A DNA stretch of 22,126 nucleotides, taken from positions 1 through 22,126 of IMG/VR virus record IMGVR_UViG_3300025543_000247; one strand, 5' to 3'. A program made the translations under genes and the position numbers. This document shows, in pieces, positions 1 to 19,221 of the stretch (positions are counted from its first letter, which is position 1; every line of letters starts with the position of its first letter). The DNA is from a virus. The notes beneath the pieces are model-generated. The model did no database searches. It was not told the DNA's origin and saw nothing but the letters and a program-made list of their open reading frames with translations.

Positions 1-3000
1 CTTTTACACGAATATTTGTTCCAGAAACATTTGTCACTGTACCGTTAGCAGAAGAGGTTGAACCAACAAGAGTATCACCAATTGCGATACCGCCCGGTGC
101 AGCCGAAAGTGTGAGTGTTGTTTCACCATGAACATCTTCATTAATACGATTAAAGATTGTTGCGGTATCAGTTGTGTCAATCGTTAGATATTCTTTATCA
201 ATATTTTTAAAGACCGCAGTACCAGTTTGATTTGTACCAAAGTTAGCAAAGTACACATTAAACTTCAAATCTTCGTCTTGTAATGGAGTCCAGTTCTTGT
301 CGTTTGCAGAAGAAAAGAGTGTGCCAATTACTGGTTGTTTTGATACACGATTACCAGAAAGTAAATCTGTTCTTCCAAGACGAGAAGTCCATACTGTATA
401 GTTTGGATTGTTATCTACTGGTTTTACAATAATAGCATAATCAATTGAGTTGAGTAGATATACTGGAGTTTCAAAGATTACTGGAGTAGGCGCAGAACCA
501 TTTGAACTTACGTTAACATCAGCAGAAGGTACGATTACACGACCAAATGGGACAACTCTATTTGTAATGAATGAAGTAGAAGGATCACATTCACGAATTT
601 CAATTGCAACACCTTTTACCGAATCTTTACTCTGGAAATACATGTCAATCTTAGATAAGAACATTCCAGGTGAAGCAACACCAGCAGAACCGAGACCATC
701 ATTTACACTGAATGTTTGGGCAAGTGGATCTGGTTGGGGTATAAATCTAATAGATGTCGTTGATTCGGTAACCGTTCTTGTAAGTGTTTCAATTTCACGA
801 GTTGCAACAATCGTACCTTGCTGTACAACACTTAGTCCACCAGCACTGTATGTTGCATCAGCAAAAGTAGCGACTGCTCCAAAACCAAGACTGTTTGTTG
901 GACTATCGGTTAAGATAAACTTGAGAGATCCAACTGGAAACTTGAGAGCGTCTTCATTTGGAATTCTAAACAATCCACGAATAATACCCGTAGCATCAGT
1001 GATTAATGCGCTGCCCTCCGAAGCAGTGTTGGCAAACGATGTATTTGCTGGAGAACAGAAAGCATTTACATCTGACCCATCAAAGAATGCATAAACACGA
1101 GTACTTGGCTTCATACCTTCGGCTGTAAATTGTACAACACGAGAGCGCATGAATGGAATAATGTTTACGTCTCTGATCGAATCGCCTAAATCAGTCTCAA
1201 TTACGTTACCAGTATTAACAATTAATTGTTGACCTGTGCGACTTTCAGTTGTAGTAATTTGCCTGCCACTTCGAGTAGAACTACTACTCCAATCTCCCCA
1301 CTGAATGCCAGTAAAGTTAGCAACTTCAGCGATTGCTTCAGCAATACCACCAAAATCAATTGTGACAGATGGTACTGTTGTAATATCTTTCCAATAATCA
1401 GTGTCTGGCGTAAGTGTAATTATACCATTATATGTATAAAGTGCACCAGAAGCATTTCTTGTATCTGTCGCAAATGGATTGCTGATTGTTTCATCATGCG
1501 TCCAAGGAAGCATAATTAACTTACCAGCATTTGGTGCTGTTACAGAAGCAATTGTTGATGATGTTGTTGAAGTACCACCAACCGCTGAAGCACCAGCACT
1601 AAATGTACCAGATATATTTGAAAGATAAAGTTTTGTTCCAACTTGATAATCAAGCGTACCAGTAGCAGAACCAGCAGTAATTACTTCGCCGTTTGAATAT
1701 GTTCCAGTTCCAACAACCAACGTGATATCTTTTGATGTTGCGGTTGTGTTTGTTGAGTTGGCAGATTTAAATTCAGCCTGAACATCATCAACTTTAAATG
1801 ATGGGCGAGCTTCTTTGTTAGCTTTATCAATAGCAACTGCATATCCTGGGTCATAGATATCGGATGATGTGAAGTCAACAAACTCATCAACAATAATACC
1901 GTTTTTAAATCTATCTACACCAGAACCATCAGCAAGGAATAATTCTTTCGTATCTGTTTCAAGCAATGAAAGTGATGTGTAATACTCAAGATTATCAATA
2001 CGTGATTCAAGACCTTGAATATCTTTCATTGTGAAGCGACGAATACGAACAGGATCAAGTTTAATCGCAAGGTCAGCACGACCACCTGGAGCAGTTGCAG
2101 TACTAATACGCTTTGCATTATCTTGTGGAAGAGATGGATAAGGTTTTACATTTACAATAGCAATCGTCATACCATCAGATGGTGCAGGTGGTGTTTTTGG
2201 ATCAAGACTTGGAACGCCTTTGATTGATCTTAAAGCATTAGATGAAGTAATAACAATTCTATCTTTGCGTGGAAGATAATAATCAAAGTCTGTAATGAAG
2301 TCTTCATTAGGAGCCATAAATCGTAGCCCACCACTTGGCTCAACAATCGATGTTGAAACTGCTGGGTTACGAGAGATGTTTGTAAGAGTTGTTACATTGT
2401 TTGCAGTGTCAGTGATACGTGGACGAATATCAATATGATTGCGTAAATCGTACCGAGTGCCAGTTGTTGGTGATGTATAAACAGGAATCTCACCAGTAGT
2501 AATCGCAGTTGTATTTGCGCTATTTGTATCATCGATTGGATACGAATCAACTGAGAAGTAACCAACGCCCTGTGAAGTATCATGAGTAAAGTAATCAAAC
2601 TTAACAAGATAGACATTGCCATTTGCTGGTGTATGTGAAGCACCATTCTTTAACTTGAGTTTAGCATGGTCATAGAAGTTATCACGCATACCTGTGTCAA
2701 GCGAGAAACTACTTGTAACATCAGTACCTTCAGATGTCGTTGTAAAGAAAGTATTGCCAGTCTTTACACGAACTTCACGAAGAGCAAATCCATCAGAAGC
2801 GCCAAGATTCCATGGTCCAGCAGTTGTACCAGAATCCGAAACATTAATTTCTACATAACGACTTTCTTGAATATTCTTTGCTTTCTCTTGACCGTTCACT
2901 TTCTTGAGTTCACAAATAACAGAAGCAGCAACAGTAGAGTTTAATGTCTCTTCAATATCAATCGTTGCACTTGTAGTGGAGTTGATTGTAACTGTACGAG

Positions 3001-5011
3001 CAGCAGCATCACCACCAACACCATTGAGACTAATAACTTGACCATCATTAAACTGTTTGAAGAGTGTAGCACTTGAGATAGCAGCACCTTCGCCATTACC
3101 GTGAACACTTACTTGTGTTGCGCTATCAACAGATGAAACGACATATGTGTTTGCTTCGCCTTGAAGTTTAAGAATATCGCCAACATTATACTTAGAAGTG
3201 GCAGATGTAAGACCCGTGATAGTGTTTGCACCTGCGCCACGAGCGGCAGTTGTTTCAAGAGCAGATGCGGTATTTGCAGCAGCATTAAGAACAACATAGA
3301 AGTTTTCACGTTCTTGAGTGTCATTTAATGCACCAGTAGAGAATGGAAACTGTTCTGTCGCATCACCAGTTGCAATTGTTACTGTGCCATCAGCCGCAAT
3401 AGTGACTGGGAATTCTTTGAGAAAACGGAATTCGTTATCAATTTGATCGGATGTATCACGAAGCGTTTTGATGTTTTCAGCAGGAATATTAAATAATGCA
3501 CGGTTGAAACTTGTTTCTAAAATTGTTGCATTGTTAGCAGTCAATACTGTATCAGCAATACCATCTGTTGTACCATCATTATGATAGATTGACCGAACAT
3601 AACTGAAACTGTTTGCAGTCATATTGATATCATAGAGATATAACTTTAATTGACCAGAAGCAGCACCCTTTGAACCTGAGTTATATTCAACAGCACGAAC
3701 ACGAGCTTCACCAATCTTTGTACCAATAGCACTTGGAACAACAGTAGTGAATGAGTTATTTGAAATAGCATTTACAGCAGTATTGTAAAGTTCAACACGG
3801 TCATGACCATTAACGTCCCATGTACCAACTACTTCATTGACTGTTGTGTAGTTGCCATAGTTAGCAGGTATAGAAATATTTTCTACTGAGTTAACGTCTG
3901 TTGCTTTGTCGATTGTAACATGACTAGTTGTAAGAACTTCGTTCTCAAATCCTTTAACATATGCTTTACCTGGAGCAATATCAACGACCAGTTTGTTTAC
4001 ATCACCACCATTACCAGAAGTATAAACACCACCATTATTTGCAGAATTTAAATGTTCACGAAGCCGAGATGTAAGACCGTTAACGATATAGTTACCAGAT
4101 TCATCATATGTGCGACGAGCAATGTATTCGTTAATAACTGAATAAAGAGGCTTATCTGCTTTGAATTCAATAAGACCATTGCGAATACGAGCACGTTCTA
4201 CAAATGCTGTATCATTTTCATCTGTAAGAGATTTTGTTGTAAGAACAGCTTCAAGTTTAAGACGGTCAGCACCTGGAGCAGAATAGTTATACGAACCTTG
4301 TGCTGGATCAAGCAGTGTTGTATCTGAAGAAGATGTTACAATTGTTTCGTTGATAGTATAACCAACTTTGATATTTGTGTTTGCACTATAACGACCGACA
4401 ATTGTATTTGCTGCTGATACATTAATGAAATGGTCTTTGGCATATATGATACCATCACCAAACGAAATACGAGATGCAGAACCTAAAACATTTGTTGATT
4501 GAACACCTTCAGTAATAACGTTTGCTGATAATGCAGTATTAGATGTAAGAACTTCACCACTCAAAAAGGCAGTAGCAGTTCCTGTAGAACCAGCGCCAGT
4601 ATAACGAATGTAAAGAGTTTTTGTATTTGGTGTTTGTGCTTCTGTGCCAGTTGCAGAGTCAATAACATATGCAGTAACACCAGATGTGCCACCAGTAATT
4701 GTTGAACCAACAAATGCAGCAGTATTTACGGTTGTTGCATTTTGATCAGCATCACGAATCTTAACATATTTAATATTACGGTCGTAGTTCATTTCTAAAC
4801 CACGAACAGTACTTCCCTCTACGAAGACATGCTCACCAAAACGGTCAATTTGATTTTGGAGAATAGTCTGCATTTGAGTAAGTTCACGGGCTTGAACAGC
4901 AAGACCTGGACGATATAAAACACGATGAAAGTTTTTACTCTCGTCGAAATCGTCATAGTATGGACTGACATTGAAATCAGTTGTCAATGAATTCGTATTA
5001 GCAGTTGCCAT
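1..5011 (-). CDS. Giant DUF4815-type virion structural protein (3' end outside window)
   Basis: Open frame read by eye from ATG at 5011 to the left edge: about 1670 codons, no stop seen, C-terminus missing. The start has AAGGA (5021-5025, minus strand) nine bases upstream, overlapping the gp8 stop. Residues 31-63 carry the motif RPGLAVQARELTQMQ followed by QNQIDRFGEHVF, which I recognise as the N-terminus of the DUF4815 family of marine T4-like phages. Near residue 985-1015 is a probable helix (RRFTMKDIQGLESRI, then LEYYTSLSLLE). Near 1290 comes FMRSRVVQFTAEGMKPS, and near 1425 DPLAQTFSV begins a probable beta-sandwich seen in other large cyanophage tail proteins. Ser/Thr/Gly-rich beta repeats, some of the ITGGTSG type, are scattered through it. 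It follows gp8, where T4 has gp9-gp12, so a peripheral baseplate or host-contact role is inferred. The exact function is unknown. Confidence 0.8.
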   Translation of the reverse strand, partial: MATANTNSLTTDFNVSPYYDDFDESKNFHRVLYRPGLAVQARELTQMQTILQNQIDRFGEHVFVEGSTVRGLEMNYDRNIKYVKIRDADQNATTVNTAAFVGSTITGGTSGVTAYVIDSATGTEAQTPNTKTLYIRYTGAGSTGTATAFLSGEVLTSNTALSANVITEGVQSTNVLGSASRISFGDGIIYAKDHFINVSAANTIVGRYSANTNIKVGYTINETIVTSSSDTTLLDPAQGSYNYSAPGADRLKLEAVLTTKSLTDENDTAFVERARIRNGLIEFKADKPLYSVINEYIARRTYDESGNYIVNGLTSRLREHLNSANNGGVYTSGNGGDVNKLVVDIAPGKAYVKGFENEVLTTSHVTIDKATDVNSVENISIPANYGNYTTVNEVVGTWDVNGHDRVELYNTAVNAISNNSFTTVVPSAIGTKIGEARVRAVEYNSGSKGAASGQLKLYLYDINMTANSFSYVRSIYHNDGTTDGIADTVLTANNATILETSFNRALFNIPAENIKTLRDTSDQIDNEFRFLKEFPVTIAADGTVTIATGDATEQFPFSTGALNDTQERENFYVVLNAAANTASALETTAARGAGANTITGLTSATSKYNVGDILKLQGEANTYVVSSVDSATQVSVHGNGEGAAISSATLFKQFNDGQVISLNGVGGDAAARTVTINSTTSATIDIEETLNSTVAASVICELKKVNGQEKAKNIQESRYVEINVSDSGTTAGPWNLGASDGFALREVRVKTGNTFFTTTSEGTDVTSSFSLDTGMRDNFYDHAKLKLKNGASHTPANGNVYLVKFDYFTHDTSQGVGYFSVDSYPIDDTNSANTTAITTGEIPVYTSPTTGTRYDLRNHIDIRPRITDTANNVTTLTNISRNPAVSTSIVEPSGGLRFMAPNEDFITDFDYYLPRKDRIVITSSNALRSIKGVPSLDPKTPPAPSDGMTIAIVNVKPYPSLPQDNAKRISTATAPGGRADLAIKLDPVRIRRFTMKDIQGLESRIDNLEYYTSLSLLETDTKELFLADGSGVDRFKNGIIVDEFVDFTSSDIYDPGYAVAIDKANKEARPSFKVDDVQAEFKSANSTNTTATSKDITLVVGTGTYSNGEVITAGSATGTLDYQVGTKLYLSNISGTFSAGASAVGGTSTTSSTIASVTAPNAGKLIMLPWTHDETISNPFATDTRNASGALYTYNGIITLTPDTDYWKDITTVPSVTIDFGGIAEAIAEVANFTGIQWGDWSSSSTRSGRQITTTESRTGQQLIVNTGNVIETDLGDSIRDVNIIPFMRSRVVQFTAEGMKPSTRVYAFFDGSDVNAFCSPANTSFANTASEGSALITDATGIIRGLFRIPNEDALKFPVGSLKFILTDSPTNSLGFGAVATFADATYSAGGLSVVQQGTIVATREIETLTRTVTESTTSIRFIPQPDPLAQTFSVNDGLGSAGVASPGMFLSKIDMYFQSKDSVKGVAIEIRECDPSTSFITNRVVPFGRVIVPSADVNVSSNGSAPTPVIFETPVYLLNSIDYAIIVKPVDNNPNYTVWTSRLGRTDLLSGNRVSKQPVIGTLFSSANDKNWTPLQDEDLKFNVYFANFGTNQTGTAVFKNIDKEYLTIDTTDTATIFNRINEDVHGETTLTLSAAPGGIAIGDTLVGSTSSANGTVTNVSGTNIRVK

Positions 5012-13672: not shown

Positions 13673-15033
13673 TATTCTACCTCAACTAACTCTTTTGCAA
13701 AAGAATCTTTAACACATTCAAATACAGTAAAAAAACTGTTATCTTTTTTATTATAAGTATGCCTCAAAGCAATAATAAAAAATCTTTTATCGTACAAAAT
13801 ATTAACTTTTTTCTCAAAGTCTTTCTTACTCGTTGATTGTGGGATATGTAGATTTACAATATCTCCAATACGAATATCTGAATTGCCAGGCACCGTCACA
13901 CTAAAAGAAATATTTTCAAGTTGTAATCGAGAAGCAATATCATATTTCAAAAATTTATGAATTTTTCTTGGATTACGAATTTGGGCATCATTTGTGACTG
14001 CTGCATTTAAAAAATTTTGTTTTGAATAGTTTTCCCCAATATTAGATATAATCATTATACTCTTCGACGAGCCTGCATCATTTTTAAAAATTGAGTTCTC
14101 AGTTAGATATTTTCTATTATTAAATGATTTTTCTACATGTCCTATCTTTGATGAATCTCTTTCATAAAGATAACTATCTGTAGTAAACCTTTTTGTAATT
14201 GGATCAATCGTTTCAATCGTATTGAAATAAAGACCCATTTCAAGATTTTCAAGCGTGTCAAGTTGACTTTCGAAATCTAAATTACTAATTTTTTGATGAG
14301 GGTTAATCTTGTCTCCCATATCTTTCTCTTGTTCAACCTGAGCATCAACAAGAAAGAAGTTTTCTACGGCATCTTGTGTCAACATACTATCAATCGTTTT
14401 GAAATGCCAACCATCAGCATCTTCAAAGAAAATAAAATTTGATGCTAAACTTTCTTGATTATTTTTACTTTCTGCTTCTCCAGCAAGATAGTTAATGACG
14501 TCAAACGGTTTCTTGTCGGGAACAACGAGTGAAACATTATCCTTTGTCTCTTCAATTTCAAGAACTTTGTTCTTTTTAATGATTCCGTATTCTTCTTCTG
14601 TTGGTTTTAAAAACTCATTGTAAATCGACTTGACAATCGTAGATGCTGGTAAATCAACATAAGACTTTTTTACACCTTTTCGTTGATTGCTTAAACCTTC
14701 TTGACTCACCCCATGAATTACAAACACATCGGATCTTTGTTCTGATTTGTTTTTATCTGTTATGCTATATACTCGAAAAACATATGTAAGTAAATTATCA
14801 AACGTTGGAGTTTTAAATGAAATAACAAGCGTTTCTTCACCAACTATAGGCATGAATTCAACGATACCATTTGAATCAGCAAGAACTAATTCACACGTTA
14901 TCCCGTGATCAAATATATCGTGGTATATATTGAACTCAACAGTCAAATGTCTAATATCAATAACTTTTTTATTATAATTATAAAGAAGACAAGACTTGAG
15001 TTCAACATCACCAGGTTTATATGGTATTGTCAT
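13672..15033 (-). CDS. gp27: Baseplate hub protein gp27-like
   Basis: 453 residues; T4 gp27 has 391. The N-terminal part (DVELKSCLLYNYNKKVIDI, then VEFNIYHDIFDHGITCELVLADSNG) fits the first beta-barrel of gp27-type hubs. An internal FDVINYLAGEAES segment with a following FFEDADGWHFKTID strand pair, and a late IRIGDIVNLHIP segment, are usual in gp27/Mu gp44/VgrG hub proteins. In T4 a gp27 trimer is the torus joining the gp5 spike to the tail tube. Position directly upstream of gp5 with a one-base TAATG overlap supports this. It also overlaps the gp53 stop by one base and has no clear ribosome site of its own. The assignment rests on fold-like patterns and context. Confidence 0.75.
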   Translation of the reverse strand: MTIPYKPGDVELKSCLLYNYNKKVIDIRHLTVEFNIYHDIFDHGITCELVLADSNGIVEFMPIVGEETLVISFKTPTFDNLLTYVFRVYSITDKNKSEQRSDVFVIHGVSQEGLSNQRKGVKKSYVDLPASTIVKSIYNEFLKPTEEEYGIIKKNKVLEIEETKDNVSLVVPDKKPFDVINYLAGEAESKNNQESLASNFIFFEDADGWHFKTIDSMLTQDAVENFFLVDAQVEQEKDMGDKINPHQKISNLDFESQLDTLENLEMGLYFNTIETIDPITKRFTTDSYLYERDSSKIGHVEKSFNNRKYLTENSIFKNDAGSSKSIMIISNIGENYSKQNFLNAAVTNDAQIRNPRKIHKFLKYDIASRLQLENISFSVTVPGNSDIRIGDIVNLHIPQSTSKKDFEKKVNILYDKRFFIIALRHTYNKKDNSFFTVFECVKDSFAKELVEVE

Positions 15034-15599
15034 TATTCAAAAATACTTTCAGCTTCATTTAAGAAATTTGGTATAAAATCGTTATGTAAAATTTTTATAA
15101 CTCTTTTCTTTTCATTTTGACGTTCTTCATATGTATAGTTTGATACTTCACGTCTCTCTGTTGTTGCTAGACCATTATATGTTGTTTCATCAACTATAAT
15201 TGATTTTTCTGGAACGATAGTACCATCAAAAAGAACAGACTGTGTTTGAATGATTTGTTCATAATGGTGCACTGTATTTAATGCAGATTCAACTGAGTTA
15301 TATTTAGATTTCACAAACGCAGTGAATTGTTGATAGTCCAAAGGAAGGTCGTAGTATGGGTCAATAATATCATTAATAATATAAATGATCCAATCAAGTG
15401 TAACATCGTTATAATATCTTTTTGCTATAAACTGAAGCGACTGACCTTCTTGTAAATTATGAGTGTAGTATAACGCCGATCTATTTTCAAGAACTTGTTG
15501 TAACTTGAATCGAACAAGAGGATTTTGAACAATATTAGGCACACCGTTCTTTTGAACGTCATAAGATACCGAAGGATGATTTGCAAAAAAGAATGGCAT
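15033..15599 (-). CDS. gp53: Baseplate wedge protein gp53
   Basis: 188 residues, near T4 gp53 (196). The central segment, HNLQEGQSLQFIAKRYYND then LDWIIYIINDI (about 47-78), is the LysM-like part typical of gp53 and related wedge proteins. The N-terminus MPFFFANHPSVSYD and the NPLVRFKLQ segment also match the family. In T4, gp53 binds gp6/gp25 in the wedge and helps the wedges join around the hub. It begins six bases after gp48, with TAGG about ten bases before the ATG. Its TAA overlaps the gp27 ATG. Confidence 0.88.
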   Translation of the reverse strand: MPFFFANHPSVSYDVQKNGVPNIVQNPLVRFKLQQVLENRSALYYTHNLQEGQSLQFIAKRYYNDVTLDWIIYIINDIIDPYYDLPLDYQQFTAFVKSKYNSVESALNTVHHYEQIIQTQSVLFDGTIVPEKSIIVDETTYNGLATTERREVSNYTYEERQNEKKRVIKILHNDFIPNFLNEAESIFE

Positions 15600-15605
15600 T
15601 TTATC

Positions 15606-16553
15606 TTACCTATTTTGTTTTTTAATTTGTTCTTTGGAAATAATAGAAACTTCAGAAAATTGCAATCCTAAAGTAATTGATAGTGGCGCTTTTTCACTCA
15701 CACCTTCTATTTCAACATCATGATACAACGGTTGTCCTTCGGCATGATACTCAACTGCAACTGAATTAAGAACTGATGGTCCAATATTGTATAGAAACTT
15801 ATCATAATGAAAATCAATATCGAATTGTTCTGGGTAGTCAAAAAAATGTTCTTTACCAGATTTCATTCCAGGTGCAGAATGATATTTGAATGCATAGATA
15901 ATTGATCGAATAATATCTGTTTCTTCCCTTGATTTCGCTATAAGTTTCCAGTTAAAACTATGTGAGCGAATGTTAGGATTACTATACATCGTTGCCATAT
16001 ATGGGTTTCGAGCAAGACCCGCACCAGCAATTCCACCTTTCAGTGCTTGACCAGCCGCTGCACCAGCCAAAGCTCCAGCCGCAGCTCCAACACCGCCACC
16101 TATACTTCCCACTGCACCACCAACAAAAGATCCTACATTTTCTTCTGCTGCTTGCAATCCATAGTACATACCTGCATCTACAATTGAACTTTTTGTCACA
16201 TTTGCTAAACTATCCACTACGCCAGTAATACCACCAGAAACCATAGCACTGCCTAGTTTTGCACCTGCTGCGCCTGCAACTCCAATTCCTTCTGTGTTAT
16301 AATTATGAGAATAGTTTGTTCCAATAGAAGCAGGAAGAGGAAGGAAGATTCTTTTCATATCTTCATTGATTGGGAAATCGTCTTTTCGTAACAGTTCTGG
16401 TCTTTGGATTCTAAACGCCATCCAATGATCAATTTCAACTAAATTTTTAGGAAAAGAAATATTCTTCTCTCCTCCCGTATCCAATGCTGCTGCAAGCTCA
16501 TCTTTTGGTGAAAATTTTCCTGGAGGCGAAGAGACTGGGAATGTATCTGCCAT
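15606..16553 (-). CDS. gp48: Baseplate-tail tube junction protein gp48
   Basis: 315 residues; T4 gp48 has 364. The second half carries the tube-like domain of gp48: NPYMATMYSNPNIRSHSFNW (183-202), then REETDIIRSIIYAFKYHSAPG and a C-terminal LSITLGLQFSEVSIISKEQI strand pair. Residues 141-179 are a Gly/Ala stretch with GxxxG spacing (GGAVGSIGGGVGAAAGALAG), long enough to insert in a hydrophobic environment or line a pore. In T4, gp48 caps the hub and starts the tube with gp54. AAGGA (16563-16567, minus) lies nine bases before the ATG, so the ribosome site shares bases with the plus-strand late promoter spacer. Confidence 0.85.
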   Translation of the reverse strand: MADTFPVSSPPGKFSPKDELAAALDTGGEKNISFPKNLVEIDHWMAFRIQRPELLRKDDFPINEDMKRIFLPLPASIGTNYSHNYNTEGIGVAGAAGAKLGSAMVSGGITGVVDSLANVTKSSIVDAGMYYGLQAAEENVGSFVGGAVGSIGGGVGAAAGALAGAAAGQALKGGIAGAGLARNPYMATMYSNPNIRSHSFNWKLIAKSREETDIIRSIIYAFKYHSAPGMKSGKEHFFDYPEQFDIDFHYDKFLYNIGPSVLNSVAVEYHAEGQPLYHDVEIEGVSEKAPLSITLGLQFSEVSIISKEQIKKQNR

Positions 16554-16554
16554 C

Positions 16555-16562
16555 TATAAATA
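16555..16562 (+). promoter_or_regulatory. T4-type late promoter before gp4
   Basis: Exact TATAAATA on the plus strand, one base beyond the gp48 start codon. T4 spacing puts the start near 16568, giving gp4 a leader of about 27 bases with no good ribosome site. It faces the gp48 promoter. Confidence 0.72.
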
Positions 16563-16586
16563 TCCTTGACTAGAAACTGTTTTGTA

Positions 16587-16594
16587 TATTTATA
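16587..16594 (-). promoter_or_regulatory. T4-type late promoter before gp48
   Basis: Exact TATAAATA on the minus strand, touching the gp4 ATG (16595). T4 spacing puts the start near 16581, about 28 bases before the gp48 ATG. It would drive gp48-gp53-gp27-gp5-395aa, since no other late promoter appears before 10987. Confidence 0.75.
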
Positions 16595-17032
16595 ATGAAA
16601 ACGCTTAAAGGCAAATATATACCACATAATCCTCATAAGTATAGAGGAGACCCAACGAATATTCAATATAGATCATCATGGGAATTAAAGTATTTCAAGT
16701 GGTGTGACTATACGGATATCGTTCTTCAATGGTCAAGCGAAGAGCATGTTATACCATATCGAAGCCCAATCGATGGTAAGATGCATCGTTACTTTCCTGA
16801 TGTATATCTTAAAATAAAAACAAACAAAGGTATTGAAGAGTGGATTGTTGAGATTAAACCATCAGCACAAACAAAAGAACCACGTATTCAAAAGAAAATG
16901 ACTCGTAAGTATATCAACGAAGTCAAGACATATGCGGTCAATCGATATAAATGGGATGCAGCATTAGAGTGGTGTAAAGACCGTAAATACAAGTTTATAA
17001 TACTTACCGAGAGTGAACTTGGAATCAAGTAA
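16595..17032 (+). CDS. gp4: Head completion protein gp4, PD-(D/E)XK nuclease-like
   Basis: 145 residues, near T4 gp4 (150). The sequence shows the order of a PD-(D/E)XK nuclease core: Glu30 in YRSSWELKYFKWCD, Pro68-Asp69 in HRYFPDVYLKI, and Glu86-x-Lys88 in WIVEIKP. The N-terminus MKTLKGKYIPHNPHKYRGD is typical of gp4 in T4-like phages. In T4, gp4 acts with gp50 after packaging so the filled head can accept the tail. The ATG directly abuts the opposing late promoter, and no convincing Shine-Dalgarno sequence precedes it; no alternative in-frame start was found upstream. Confidence 0.88.
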   Translation: MKTLKGKYIPHNPHKYRGDPTNIQYRSSWELKYFKWCDYTDIVLQWSSEEHVIPYRSPIDGKMHRYFPDVYLKIKTNKGIEEWIVEIKPSAQTKEPRIQKKMTRKYINEVKTYAVNRYKWDAALEWCKDRKYKFIILTESELGIK

Positions 17033-17033
17033 C

Positions 17034-17063
17034 TAATAGTATCAAAAGGATACAATCCTATTA
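17034..17063 (+). other. Imperfect RNA hairpin after gp4
   Basis: GTATC (17039-17043) pairs with GATAC (17049-17053) around the loop AAAAG. The flanking TAATA (17034-17038) can pair with TATTA (17059-17063) across a five-base bulge. No U-run follows at once; the nearest T-run is near 17090-17097. It may be a weak terminator or processing site separating gp4 from gp2 mRNA, but this is uncertain. Confidence 0.35.
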
Positions 17064-17101
17064 TAACTCTATTCTACAATCATGTCAACTCTTTTTTTGA
17101 T

Positions 17102-17109
17102 TATAAATA
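17102..17109 (+). promoter_or_regulatory. T4-type late promoter before gp2
   Basis: Exact TATAAATA on the plus strand in the 95-bp gap after gp4. T4 spacing puts the start near 17115, inside or right at the AAGGAG ribosome site, so the leader would be unusually short. If used, it would supply gp2, gp54, gp26, the 58-codon frame and gp29. Confidence 0.7.
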
Positions 17110-17114
17110 AGTAA

Positions 17115-17120
17115 AAGGAG
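17115..17120 (+). promoter_or_regulatory. Ribosome binding site deciding a TTG start
   Basis: AAGGAG, seven bases before TTG at 17128. It is the best Shine-Dalgarno match in the window and has no in-frame ATG nearby, so it fixes the TTG as the start of the gp2 gene. Confidence 0.75.
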
Positions 17121-17127
17121 ATTTACT

Positions 17128-17709
17128 TTGGTTGCATATACATTTGATTCTATTTTAGCAAAAGGTGTTCGTGCTGGTCAGATTCCTGCTCGAACTAATG
17201 CTGCTCGTGAATGGTTTCGAAAAGAAGCAAAGAAAACATCAGTAACACCTGAGTCATTAATGAAAGAGGATCGTACACAACTGAAGAATCGAGCCGCTAT
17301 TGGAAAGATGTATTTGTTTGGTTATGATCCAAAACATAAGAAGACGCTACCATATTACGATACGTTTCCGTTAATCTTTAAGGTGCAGAATGTTCCTGGT
17401 GGGTTTCATGGCATCAATTTGCATTATTTACCACTACCACTTCGTGCGAAACTGATGGATGCTTTATATGATTTAACGACAAATAGCAAATATGATGATT
17501 CAACTAAATTGAAACTCAGCTATAATATATTGAAAGGCATCAGCAAGTATTACAAGCCGACATTTAAAATGTATTTAAATCAACATGTGCGTGGTCGTTT
17601 TTTAGAGATTAGTTCTACAGACTGGGATACAGCATTGTTCTTACCACTAGAGCGTTTCGAAAAGAGTTCCAAGTCAAAAGTTTGGCGTGACTCAAGAGCA
17701 ATGGTATAA
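17128..17709 (+). CDS. gp2: Probable DNA end protector gp2
   Basis: 193 residues from a TTG start. I recognise the family from marine T4-like phages: GKMYLFGYDPKHKKTLPYYD, then TFPLIFKV, GGFHGINLHYLPLPLRAKLM, and near the end RGRFLEISSTDWDTALFLP. I recall it being annotated as gp2, the protein that protects packaged DNA ends and completes the head. T4 gp2 is longer (274 residues), so this would be a shorter form. The position beside gp4 agrees with T4, where genes 2 and 4 are adjacent. The N-terminal 60 residues are basic and helical (GVRAGQIPARTNAAREWFRK), consistent with DNA contact. The gp2 label is less certain than the family recognition. Confidence 0.65.
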   Translation: MVAYTFDSILAKGVRAGQIPARTNAAREWFRKEAKKTSVTPESLMKEDRTQLKNRAAIGKMYLFGYDPKHKKTLPYYDTFPLIFKVQNVPGGFHGINLHYLPLPLRAKLMDALYDLTTNSKYDDSTKLKLSYNILKGISKYYKPTFKMYLNQHVRGRFLEISSTDWDTALFLPLERFEKSSKSKVWRDSRAMV

Positions 17710-17712
17710 GGA
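17708..17712 (+). promoter_or_regulatory. Ribosome binding site deciding the gp54 start
   Basis: AAGGA overlaps the gp2 stop codon (TAA 17707-17709) and lies seven bases before ATG 17720. This favours 17720 over the upstream in-frame ATG at 17687, which would overlap gp2 and has no such site. Confidence 0.7.
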
Positions 17713-17719
17713 AGATAAA

Positions 17720-18490
17720 ATGGCATTTAATATTGACGCATTTACTGCCGAAATGCATAGTGTTGGCTTTGCTCGACCAAGCGACTTTGAAGTTGAGATC
17801 GGGGGAGATATTCTTTCAAAAGTTGGTGGTTCTTTTGGATTATCAAGTTCATTGATGCTTCGTGTCAACAGTGCTATTATTCCTGGTCGTGATGTTCAAA
17901 ACTCTGTATATCTTGATTATGGAGCGCCATATAAAGTTGGCACAAAACTCAATTATGTTGATATTCCTATCTCAATTATCTGTAGTCCAGATTTAAGAGA
18001 GCGTGAATTCTTTATGCGCTGGCAAGACTTAATTGGTGGATTGCATCGCAACCCAGGACTAAATGCTGATGATAGGAAGAAACAATTTAACTCGGGATAC
18101 TATGATGATTATGTTTGTAAAAAAGGCATAACAATATACAAACTCGATCAACAAGGGTTTAAAACATACGCAGTTGATTTGATTGATGCATATCCAGTTA
18201 ACATAAATGCAATGGCACTCAGTTGGTCTTCTGGTGCTGAAATGATGAAACTTGATGTGACTTTCTCATATCGTTATTATGAAGAAAGAGATCAATCAAA
18301 ACTAGGAACACAACTTCGCATTGGAAAAGATGGATTACAAATTGCTGGTGGATTGAACTTACCATTTAGTATTGCAGGTATTAAAAATCAAGCAAAAACA
18401 CAATTGAATCCAAGAAAACTAATGACTCAACTTGGAAGAAAATCTGGAGTGAACTTTACTGGATTACCAAAAATAGGAAATTTATTTTAA
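17720..18490 (+). CDS. gp54: Baseplate tail tube initiator gp54
   Basis: 256 residues from ATG 17720; T4 gp54 has 320. It has the pattern of a tube-fold protein: an N-terminal strand (SDFEVEIGG), RVNSAIIPGRDVQNSVYLDY, then YVDIPISIICSPDLREREFF, and later a KGITIYKLDQQG strand with AVDLIDAYPVNINAMALSWS and KLDVTFSYRYYEE. The same layout occurs in the tail tube protein gp19 and in gp48/gp54. In T4, gp54 sits on gp48 and starts tube polymerisation. The C-terminal 60 residues are basic and glycine-rich. The gene lies between gp2 and the gp26-type gene. A tail tube protein is the main alternative, but tube genes usually pair with the sheath gene gp18, not seen here. Confidence 0.72.
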   Translation: MAFNIDAFTAEMHSVGFARPSDFEVEIGGDILSKVGGSFGLSSSLMLRVNSAIIPGRDVQNSVYLDYGAPYKVGTKLNYVDIPISIICSPDLREREFFMRWQDLIGGLHRNPGLNADDRKKQFNSGYYDDYVCKKGITIYKLDQQGFKTYAVDLIDAYPVNINAMALSWSSGAEMMKLDVTFSYRYYEERDQSKLGTQLRIGKDGLQIAGGLNLPFSIAGIKNQAKTQLNPRKLMTQLGRKSGVNFTGLPKIGNLF

Positions 18491-18510
18491 TTTAATATGG
18501 AGATTATAAT

Positions 18511-19221
18511 ATGGCTTTACCAAAACTAACTACGCCTGAATTTGAAACATTGATTCCATCGACTAAGGACCCAATTAAGTTTCGACCATTTTTAGTTAAA
18601 GAAGAAAAAAATCTATATATTGCTCTTGAGAGCGGCGAAGAAAAAGATATGAAAAATGCAATTCTCAATGTTCTTGAGTCTTGTATTTTAACACCAGATG
18701 TGAATGTAAAAAAACTTACTTCATATGATGTTGAATATATTTTTTTAAAGTTACGGAGCAAATCTGTAGGAGAAGTTATTGAACTTAAAGTTGGTCATAA
18801 AAATAGTGAGTGTAAAGCAATCACAGACGTTTCAATAAACGTTGATGATATTGAAGTTCATTTTGATCAAGAACATAAAGATGTGATTCAGTTTGACAAT
18901 GGTATTGGAATTAAACTAAAATCGCCTGACTTGAATAAACTTCTCGTTGGTGTGAACAATAAAAAGTCTGAGATTGAAAATGTATTTGAAACAATTGCCT
19001 CATGTGTTGTACATGTATTTGACCAAGAAAACGTTTATGAAGATTTTACTGAACAAGAGTTAATGGAATTTTTAGAAAATCTTTCTCAAAACCATTTTCG
19101 TGAAATTCAAAATTTCTTTGATACAATGCCTAAATTATATCATGATATTGAATTTACCTGTAAAGTATGTGGTGAAACTGAATCAATTCGACTTGAAGGT
19201 TTACAAAGTTTTTTTACGTGA
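18511..19221 (+). CDS. gp26: gp26-type baseplate hub / tape-measure chaperone
   Basis: 236 residues. The opening (ALPKLTTPEFETLIPSTKD, then IKFRPFLVKEEKNLYIALES) and the C-terminal CKVCGETESIRLEGLQSFF are features I recognise in gp26-type hub proteins of T4-like phages. Cys217 and Cys220 form one CxxC pair; a second pair is not obvious, so zinc binding is unproven. In T4, gp26 and gp51 are needed for hub assembly around gp29. The position immediately before the tape measure gene is that of tail assembly chaperones in many phages. GGAG lies eight bases before the ATG. The last codons run over a T TTT TTT heptamer, and the TGA overlaps the ATG of the next frame. It could equally be labelled gp51. 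Confidence 0.75.
   Translation: MALPKLTTPEFETLIPSTKDPIKFRPFLVKEEKNLYIALESGEEKDMKNAILNVLESCILTPDVNVKKLTSYDVEYIFLKLRSKSVGEVIELKVGHKNSECKAITDVSINVDDIEVHFDQEHKDVIQFDNGIGIKLKSPDLNKLLVGVNNKKSEIENVFETIASCVVHVFDQENVYEDFTEQELMEFLENLSQNHFREIQNFFDTMPKLYHDIEFTCKVCGETESIRLEGLQSFFT
19209..19215 (+). promoter_or_regulatory. Candidate -1 programmed frameshift site
   Basis: Seven T residues placed exactly as T TTT TTT relative to the gp26 frame, two codons before its stop codon. A -1 slip re-pairs both tRNAs perfectly. Reading then continues TAC GTG ATG into the following frame with no stop until 19395-19397, giving a fused protein of about 295 residues. GAAGG (19195-19199) lies nine bases upstream, where Shine-Dalgarno-like stimulators of -1 shifting are found. 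No strong downstream hairpin was seen. Confidence 0.6.

What the first reader, a model, noticed from the sequence alone, without database searches (positions are those of the whole stretch)
16554..16594. Two face-to-face late promoters packed into a 41-bp divergent gap
TATAAATA at 16555-16562 (plus) and at 16594-16587 (minus) point toward each other. By T4 late spacing, starts fall near 16568 (right) and 16581 (left), so each polymerase must cross the other's promoter and the two mRNA 5' ends would be complementary over about 14 bases. The gp48 ribosome site also lies in this stretch, and gp4's ATG touches the opposing TATA. Mutual exclusion could set the balance between baseplate and head-completion/tail-tube expression.
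Basis: partly seen in the sequence, partly recalled or inferred. Interest (0 to 1): 0.55.

Follow-up and report, generated by a model that had tools for sequence, protein, structure and literature searches.

The report
Conserved face-to-face T4-type late promoters
Two phage late promoters that point at each other across a 41-base gap are really there and recur at the same junction in most related phages examined, where they look like a very compact two-way start point for two sets of virion genes; whether they also regulate each other is untested.

Summary
In detail: exact TATAAATA octamers face each other at 16555-16562 (+) and 16594-16587 (-) in the 41-bp gap between divergent gp48 and gp4; 1 of 1500 shuffled windows held such a pair. 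Among relatives, 47 of 55 dereplicated gp4 junctions keep a facing pair of late-promoter variants, against 0.3 in shuffles. Phage T4 has it too, at its 53|4 junction, so the arrangement looks old. I read it as a minimal bidirectional late-promoter node: T4-type late promoters need only one octamer, so each can sit against the opposing start codon; in 20 of 47 clusters the octamer contains gp4's ATG. Two polymerases on one DNA copy would clash (inference). Balance-setting by mutual exclusion is possible but untested. In nine relatives the gap plus gp4 is about 97-98% identical to the window while gp48 protein is only 36-45% identical, so the node also marks a likely recombination boundary. No mapped 5' ends were available.

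The parts
16555..16562 (+). late-promoter octamer TATAAATA for gp4 and the right arm; predicted start about 16568
   Evidence: conserved in relatives
16587..16594 (-). late-promoter octamer TATAAATA for gp48 and the left arm; predicted start about 16581
   Evidence: conserved in relatives
16554..16594 (.). 41-bp divergent gap holding both promoters
16568..16581 (.). predicted 14-bp overlap of the two transcripts' 5' ends
   Evidence: computed from T4 spacing (PMC1524935 passages); not mapped
16563..16567 (-). AAGGA, Shine-Dalgarno-like site of gp48, 9 nt from its ATG
   Evidence: sequence
15606..16553 (-). gp48-like baseplate tail-tube cap, first gene of the left arm
   Evidence: phrog_230 E 2e-50; Pfam T4_tail_cap E 1.8e-05
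15033..15599 (-). gp53-like baseplate wedge subunit, second gene of the left arm
   Evidence: phrog_232; Pfam Phage_gp53
16595..17032 (+). gp4-like head closure/completion protein, first gene of the right arm
   Evidence: phrog_218 E 7.8e-57; Pfam TnsA-like N-terminal E 1.9e-18
17102..17109 (+). further late octamer TATAAATA upstream of the gp2-like gene
17128..17709 (+). gp2-like DNA end protector (TTG start predicted)
   Evidence: phrog_429
16550..17030 (.). block (gap plus gp4) about 97-98% identical to nine relatives with different gp48 alleles; left edge 16541 or 16550

Best explanation
It is a minimal bidirectional late-promoter node of a T4-type phage. Two single-octamer late promoters face each other, each placed about 32-33 nt upstream of its own gene, so in a 41-bp gap each octamer ends up against the opposite start codon. 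The phage late polymerase would load on either promoter of a given DNA copy, not both at once, melt the shared segment and leave through the other promoter, making gp48-53 mRNA leftward or gp4-gp2 mRNA rightward; across many genome copies both arms are expressed. Shown: the sites, their geometry, their conservation and the neighbouring genes. Inferred: promoter activity, start sites, steric exclusion, and that compaction rather than regulation is the main reason for the geometry.
For: Exact facing octamers, 1 of 1500 shuffles. 47 of 55 clusters facing versus mean 0.30 and at most 3 in 500 shuffles. Every octamer of the 47 pairs has A or C before TAAATA, the known late variants NATAAATA (PMC2984593 passages) and CTAAATA (PMC1524935 passages). 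In 31 of 47 clusters the two octamers differ from each other, so it is two promoters rather than one perfect palindrome. Sense motifs sit 25-36 nt upstream of starts genome-wide, antisense ones are rare there. Upstream neighbour is gp48 in 37, T4-GC334 in 8, a tail-tube gene in 1 and unassigned in 1 of the 47, so the pair persists while neighbours change. T4 53|4 has the pair. T4 late promoters have no -35 element (PMC2988020 passages), which allows the packing.
Against: 8 of 55 clusters lack the pair: 3 minus only, 1 plus only, 1 back-to-back, 3 neither, so it is not indispensable. Vibrio phage D482 and Pelagibacter phage HTVC008M have back-to-back motifs, so divergent late genes can be served otherwise, even in a 26-bp gap. 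Genome-wide counts of the loose facing pattern in 7 phages (18) are not far above the reversed-pattern control (11); the signal is at this junction. No mapped 5' ends. gp55/gp33/gp45 of this phage were not examined; the record is a 22-kb fragment.
Confidence: 0.75

Rival explanations
1. The facing pair is a regulatory device: promoter occlusion and collision make the two arms mutually exclusive per DNA copy and fix the ratio of baseplate to head-completion transcripts.
For: Predicted starts are 14 bp apart and each lies inside the other's promoter region, so simultaneous occupancy is unlikely; spacing stays within 24-43 bp in 47 clusters and 21 bp in T4, always close enough to clash; face-to-face promoters with transcriptional interference are discussed for phage 186 (PMC7498355, search listing only).
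Against: No measurement. Spacing and transcript overlap vary; 8 of 55 clusters have lost or rearranged the pair. Short gaps alone would produce the same geometry.
Confidence: 0.2
2. Only one of the two octamers is an active promoter in the window's phage; the other is a relic or an A/T-rich leader that helps SD-less translation of gp4.
For: gp4 has no Shine-Dalgarno core in 44 of 47 facing clusters; in some relatives one of the two sites is lost (11 loci minus only, 5 plus only of 264).
Against: SD cores are uncommon in these marine phages anyway (41 of 128, 37 of 128 and 55 of 208 ORFs in Syn9, ACG-2014b and P-SSM2), so no special leader is needed. TATTTAD is rare upstream of other starts (5 motifs in 153 starts, 4 in 151, 9 in 246), and changes in the - site run between known promoter variants.
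Confidence: 0.12
3. The inverted repeat is a hairpin, terminator or operator, not two promoters.
For: In the window the arms are perfectly complementary over 9 bp (16555-16563 and 16586-16594).
Against: In 31 of 47 clusters the two octamers differ; the arms are A/T-only and the spacer varies; neither predicted transcript contains both arms.
Confidence: 0.03

Closest known systems
T4 gene 53 | gene 4 divergent junction (NC_000866, 77338-77384)
   Same: Facing exact TATAAATA octamers between gp4 and a baseplate gene; conserved arm order gp4-gp2 on one side, gp53 on the other.
   Different: In T4 the inner gap is 7 bp, predicted starts do not overlap, both genes have room for a Shine-Dalgarno outside the octamers, and the partner is gp53 rather than gp48.
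Same junction in marine cyanomyoviruses (Syn9, Syn19, ACG-2014b, P-SSM4, P-RSM4, S-ShM2)
   Same: gp48 | gp4 with facing late motifs; gp4 start codon overlapped by the opposing octamer in Syn9, Syn19, ACG-2014b, P-SSM4 and P-RSM4.
   Different: Variants CTAAATA/CATAAATA instead of TATAAATA on both strands; different spacers.
Face-to-face interfering promoters such as phage 186 pR-pL (search listing PMC7498355; otherwise recalled)
   Same: Two promoters pointing at each other, so transcription passes through the opposing promoter.
   Different: Here both are late promoters of one class in a lytic-type gene set, separated by tens of bp; interference not measured.

Membership tests
T4-type late promoter | 8-bp TATA box matching TATAAATA or known variants | tested here: met
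   Both exact.
T4-type late promoter | sense orientation a short distance upstream of a late (virion) gene | tested here: met
   32 and 33 nt from octamer to gp4 and gp48 start codons; virion genes by profile; genome-wide position peak in three relatives.
T4-type late promoter | transcription start about one helical turn downstream of the box | not testable with these tools
   No 5'-end data; the Syn9 transcriptome paper recalled by DOI is not held.
T4-type late promoter | dependence on gp55, gp33 and the gp45 clamp | not tested
   Not searched in this 22-kb record; PMC2984593 passages report these genes in cyanomyoviruses.
Orthologous gp4-junction promoter pair of T4-like phages | two facing late octamers between divergent gp4 and a baseplate or tail gene | tested here: met
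   47 of 55 clusters, 243 of 264 divergent loci; T4; 6 of 11 further named phages and 8 of 9 T4-gp4 loci, one of these (BUCT608) with weaker variants.
Interfering face-to-face promoter pair | activity of one promoter lowers that of the other | not testable with these tools
   Needs reporter or in vitro transcription.

The most novel reading that the evidence does not exclude
The gp4 junction is an ancient control node of the T4 superfamily: one 40-bp element whose two facing late promoters exclude each other on each DNA copy and so divide late polymerase between the baseplate arm and the head-completion arm, with the opposing start codon built into the promoter itself, and which serves as the joint at which phages swap baseplate arms without losing expression of either side.
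Probability: 0.2. Interest if true: 0.65.

Novelty: new variant of a known kind. Interest (0 to 1): 0.42.

Why it matters
It shows how far T4-type late promoters, which need a single octamer, can be compressed: promoter, opposing start codon and leader share the same bases. Because the pair is conserved from T4 to marine cyanophages, a single dual-reporter or in vitro experiment with the well-studied T4 late system could test whether facing late promoters interfere, and whether phages use that to fix virion-part ratios. The sharp identity step at the node also offers a concrete place to study modular exchange of baseplate genes.

Tried and rejected
sigma-70 reading of the gap: TTGACT at 16566-16571 could mimic a -35, but close relatives read TTAACT or TTAAAT there, so it is not conserved. 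Conserved RNA-RNA pairing of the 5' ends: rejected as the main function because predicted overlap is 0-19 nt and none in T4. Loss of gp4's Shine-Dalgarno caused by the opposing octamer: considered, but SD cores are uncommon in the three cyanophages examined even at other late-motif genes (9 of 22, 9 of 27, 6 of 44), so I do not claim it. General facing of late promoters at divergent junctions: not found. In script-called ORFs 1 of 11 divergent junctions in Syn9, 1 of 7 in ACG-2014b (both this node) and 1 of 10 in P-SSM2 carried a facing pair; the P-SSM2 one is a different junction, because the crude ORF caller misplaced the gp4 junction there, which does carry the pair by annotation. Other facing pairs: of the 12 listed outside the gp4 node in seven genomes, five were looked up and none is at a divergent junction.

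Rows dropped: of 272 loci given to, 269 had a gp4 match, 266 a usable start, 264 a divergent ORF; per-locus counts contain repeats of the same contig fetched twice (for example L001/L258, L002/L259), hence the clusters. In one search the reported gp4 start was off by one base, so its gap values are 1 too large; no count depends on it. Papers: the Syn9 transcriptome paper and the T4 genome review are not held. Prior description of the facing pair was sought (open-access library, listings plus the passages cited); none seen, which is weak evidence of absence.

Full report
What is there. The window is a 22,126-base virus record of a marine T4-like phage: the DNA matches in the phage collection for 14000-19000 are all 60-80% identical, in 34 records of cyanophages, Pelagibacter phages and marine single-cell viruses. 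Left of the gap, on the minus strand, lie gp48, gp53, a tail protein and the gp5-like hub lysozyme; right of it, on the plus strand, gp4, gp2, a tail-tube-like gene and gp26-like hub. The 41-bp gap 16554-16594 holds TATAAATA on + at 16555-16562 and on - at 16594-16587. Each octamer ends 32-33 nt before its own start codon and lies against the opposite one.

More than chance. TATAAATA is found five times, 1.77 expected, with 3 of 100 shuffles reaching five; all five are in sense orientation upstream of an ORF. A facing exact pair turned up in 1 of 1500 shuffles.

Conservation. Relatives were collected by gp4 similarity with three queries and by gp48 similarity, 80 + 80 + 80 + 20 loci from capped lists, plus 12 named phage regions. 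Of 272 loci, 264 have a divergent ORF upstream of gp4; 243 carry a facing pair of HTAAATA motifs, 11 only the minus one, 5 only the plus one, 1 back-to-back and 4 neither. Clustered at 80% identity over 55 nt this is 47 facing, 3 minus only, 1 plus only, 1 back-to-back and 3 neither of 55; shuffling the same stretches 500 times gives 0.30 facing on average and never more than 3. In all 47 pairs the base before TAAATA is A or C, the variants reported for T4-like late promoters (PMC2984593 passages; PMC1524935 passages). The two octamers of a pair are identical in 16 and different in 31 clusters. The upstream partner is gp48 in 37, T4-GC334 in 8, a tail-tube gene in 1 and unassigned in 1; in P-SSM2 gp4 has changed sides and the facing pair still divides the arms.

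T4 itself. Gene 4 (-, start 77337) and gene 53 (+, start 77385) of T4 are divergent with a 47-bp gap holding TATAAATA, 7 bp, TATTTATA. Among ten further named phages read the same way, Serratia X20, E. coli VR7 and SAP, Acinetobacter AB-Navy4 and, with weaker variants, Stenotrophomonas BUCT608 face; Vibrio D482 is back-to-back; Enterobacter Nando and Klebsiella P-KP2 show only the minus motif; in Aeromonas 44RR and Rhizobium IG49 gp4 is not at a divergent junction. Of nine loci found with T4 gp4, eight face and one shows neither.

Are they promoters? In Syn9, ACG-2014b and P-SSM2 the sense motif clusters about 25-36 nt before script-called starts (16 of 25, 18 of 34 and 30 of 54 motifs in the 60 nt upstream), whereas the antisense motif is rare there (5, 4 and 9 motifs over 153, 151 and 246 starts). 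So TATTTA before gp4 is not a general leader feature. Counts of the loose facing pattern over seven whole genomes are 18 against 11 for the reversed-pattern control, and the back-to-back pattern gives 7; the gp4 node is among the hits in 6 of 7 genomes. The excess is thus local to this junction. No 5'-end data could be reached.

How it most likely works. A T4 late promoter is one 8-bp box about a helical turn before the start, with no -35 element, used by RNA polymerase with gp55, gp33 and the gp45 clamp (PMC2988020 passages). Nothing upstream is needed, so a box can abut, or even contain, the opposite gene's start codon: in 20 of 47 clusters the minus octamer is CATAAATA, which contains gp4's ATG. 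Box-to-box spacing (7-mers, outer edges) is 24-43 bp, median 33, and predicted transcript overlap 0-19 nt; in T4 it is 21 bp with no overlap. That two polymerases cannot sit there together is inference from size. I therefore favour a compact bidirectional node; active balancing by exclusion is a live but untested addition.

Recombination joint. Nine relatives (L003-L010, L014) share gp4 at 97-99% protein identity but have gp48 at only 36-45%. The near-identity (39-40 of 41 bases of the gap; about 97-98% of gp4) stops 4 or 13 bases into gp48. Flanks are 65-78% identical on the left where they align and 76-87% on the right in seven of the nine (L003-L008, L010); L014 ends inside gp4; in L009 the first 300 bases to the right of gp4 are identical to the window. 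Recent exchange of a gap-plus-gp4 block, or of arms at this joint, is the simplest reading (inference).

Novelty. The parts are known; facing late promoters are already present in T4's own sequence. I found no description of the conserved facing arrangement in the searches listed, which cover only an open-access library. I rate it a new variant of a known kind.

Noticed in passing
L087 (Pelagibacter phage HTVC008M) 2418-2445 and whole genome: Late motifs sit exactly 5 nt before ATG in 11 of the 33 cases with an ORF start within 60 nt; raw motif-N5-ATG count 13 against at most 6 at any other spacing from 0 to 40. With T4 spacing the transcript would start at the A of ATG, i.e. leaderless late mRNAs. 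PMC7029224 (passages) reports that late promoters could not be predicted in pelagimyophages.
   Followed up: partly
L061, L063-L066 upstream of gp4: Only the gp4-directed octamer is left and it lies 5 nt before ATG (TATAAATA-N5-ATG), again a predicted leaderless start.
   Followed up: no
window 16595-17032: gp4 matches the TnsA-like endonuclease N-terminal domain in Pfam (E 1.9e-18) and two endonuclease PHROGs.
   Followed up: no
Syn9 NC_008296 84411-84442: A second facing pair lies between co-directional genes just before the gp8-like gene; if active, its minus promoter would run antisense into the upstream fibre-like gene. Could be chance.
   Followed up: no
L093 (S-WAM1) 1489-1490: gp48 and gp4 start codons overlap as CCATGG with no gap and no late motif in the 71 nt upstream of gp4.
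   Followed up: no
L018 just upstream of gp4 (about 2990-3003): The gp4 start region is duplicated, ATGAAAACAC followed by ATGAAAACA.
   Followed up: no
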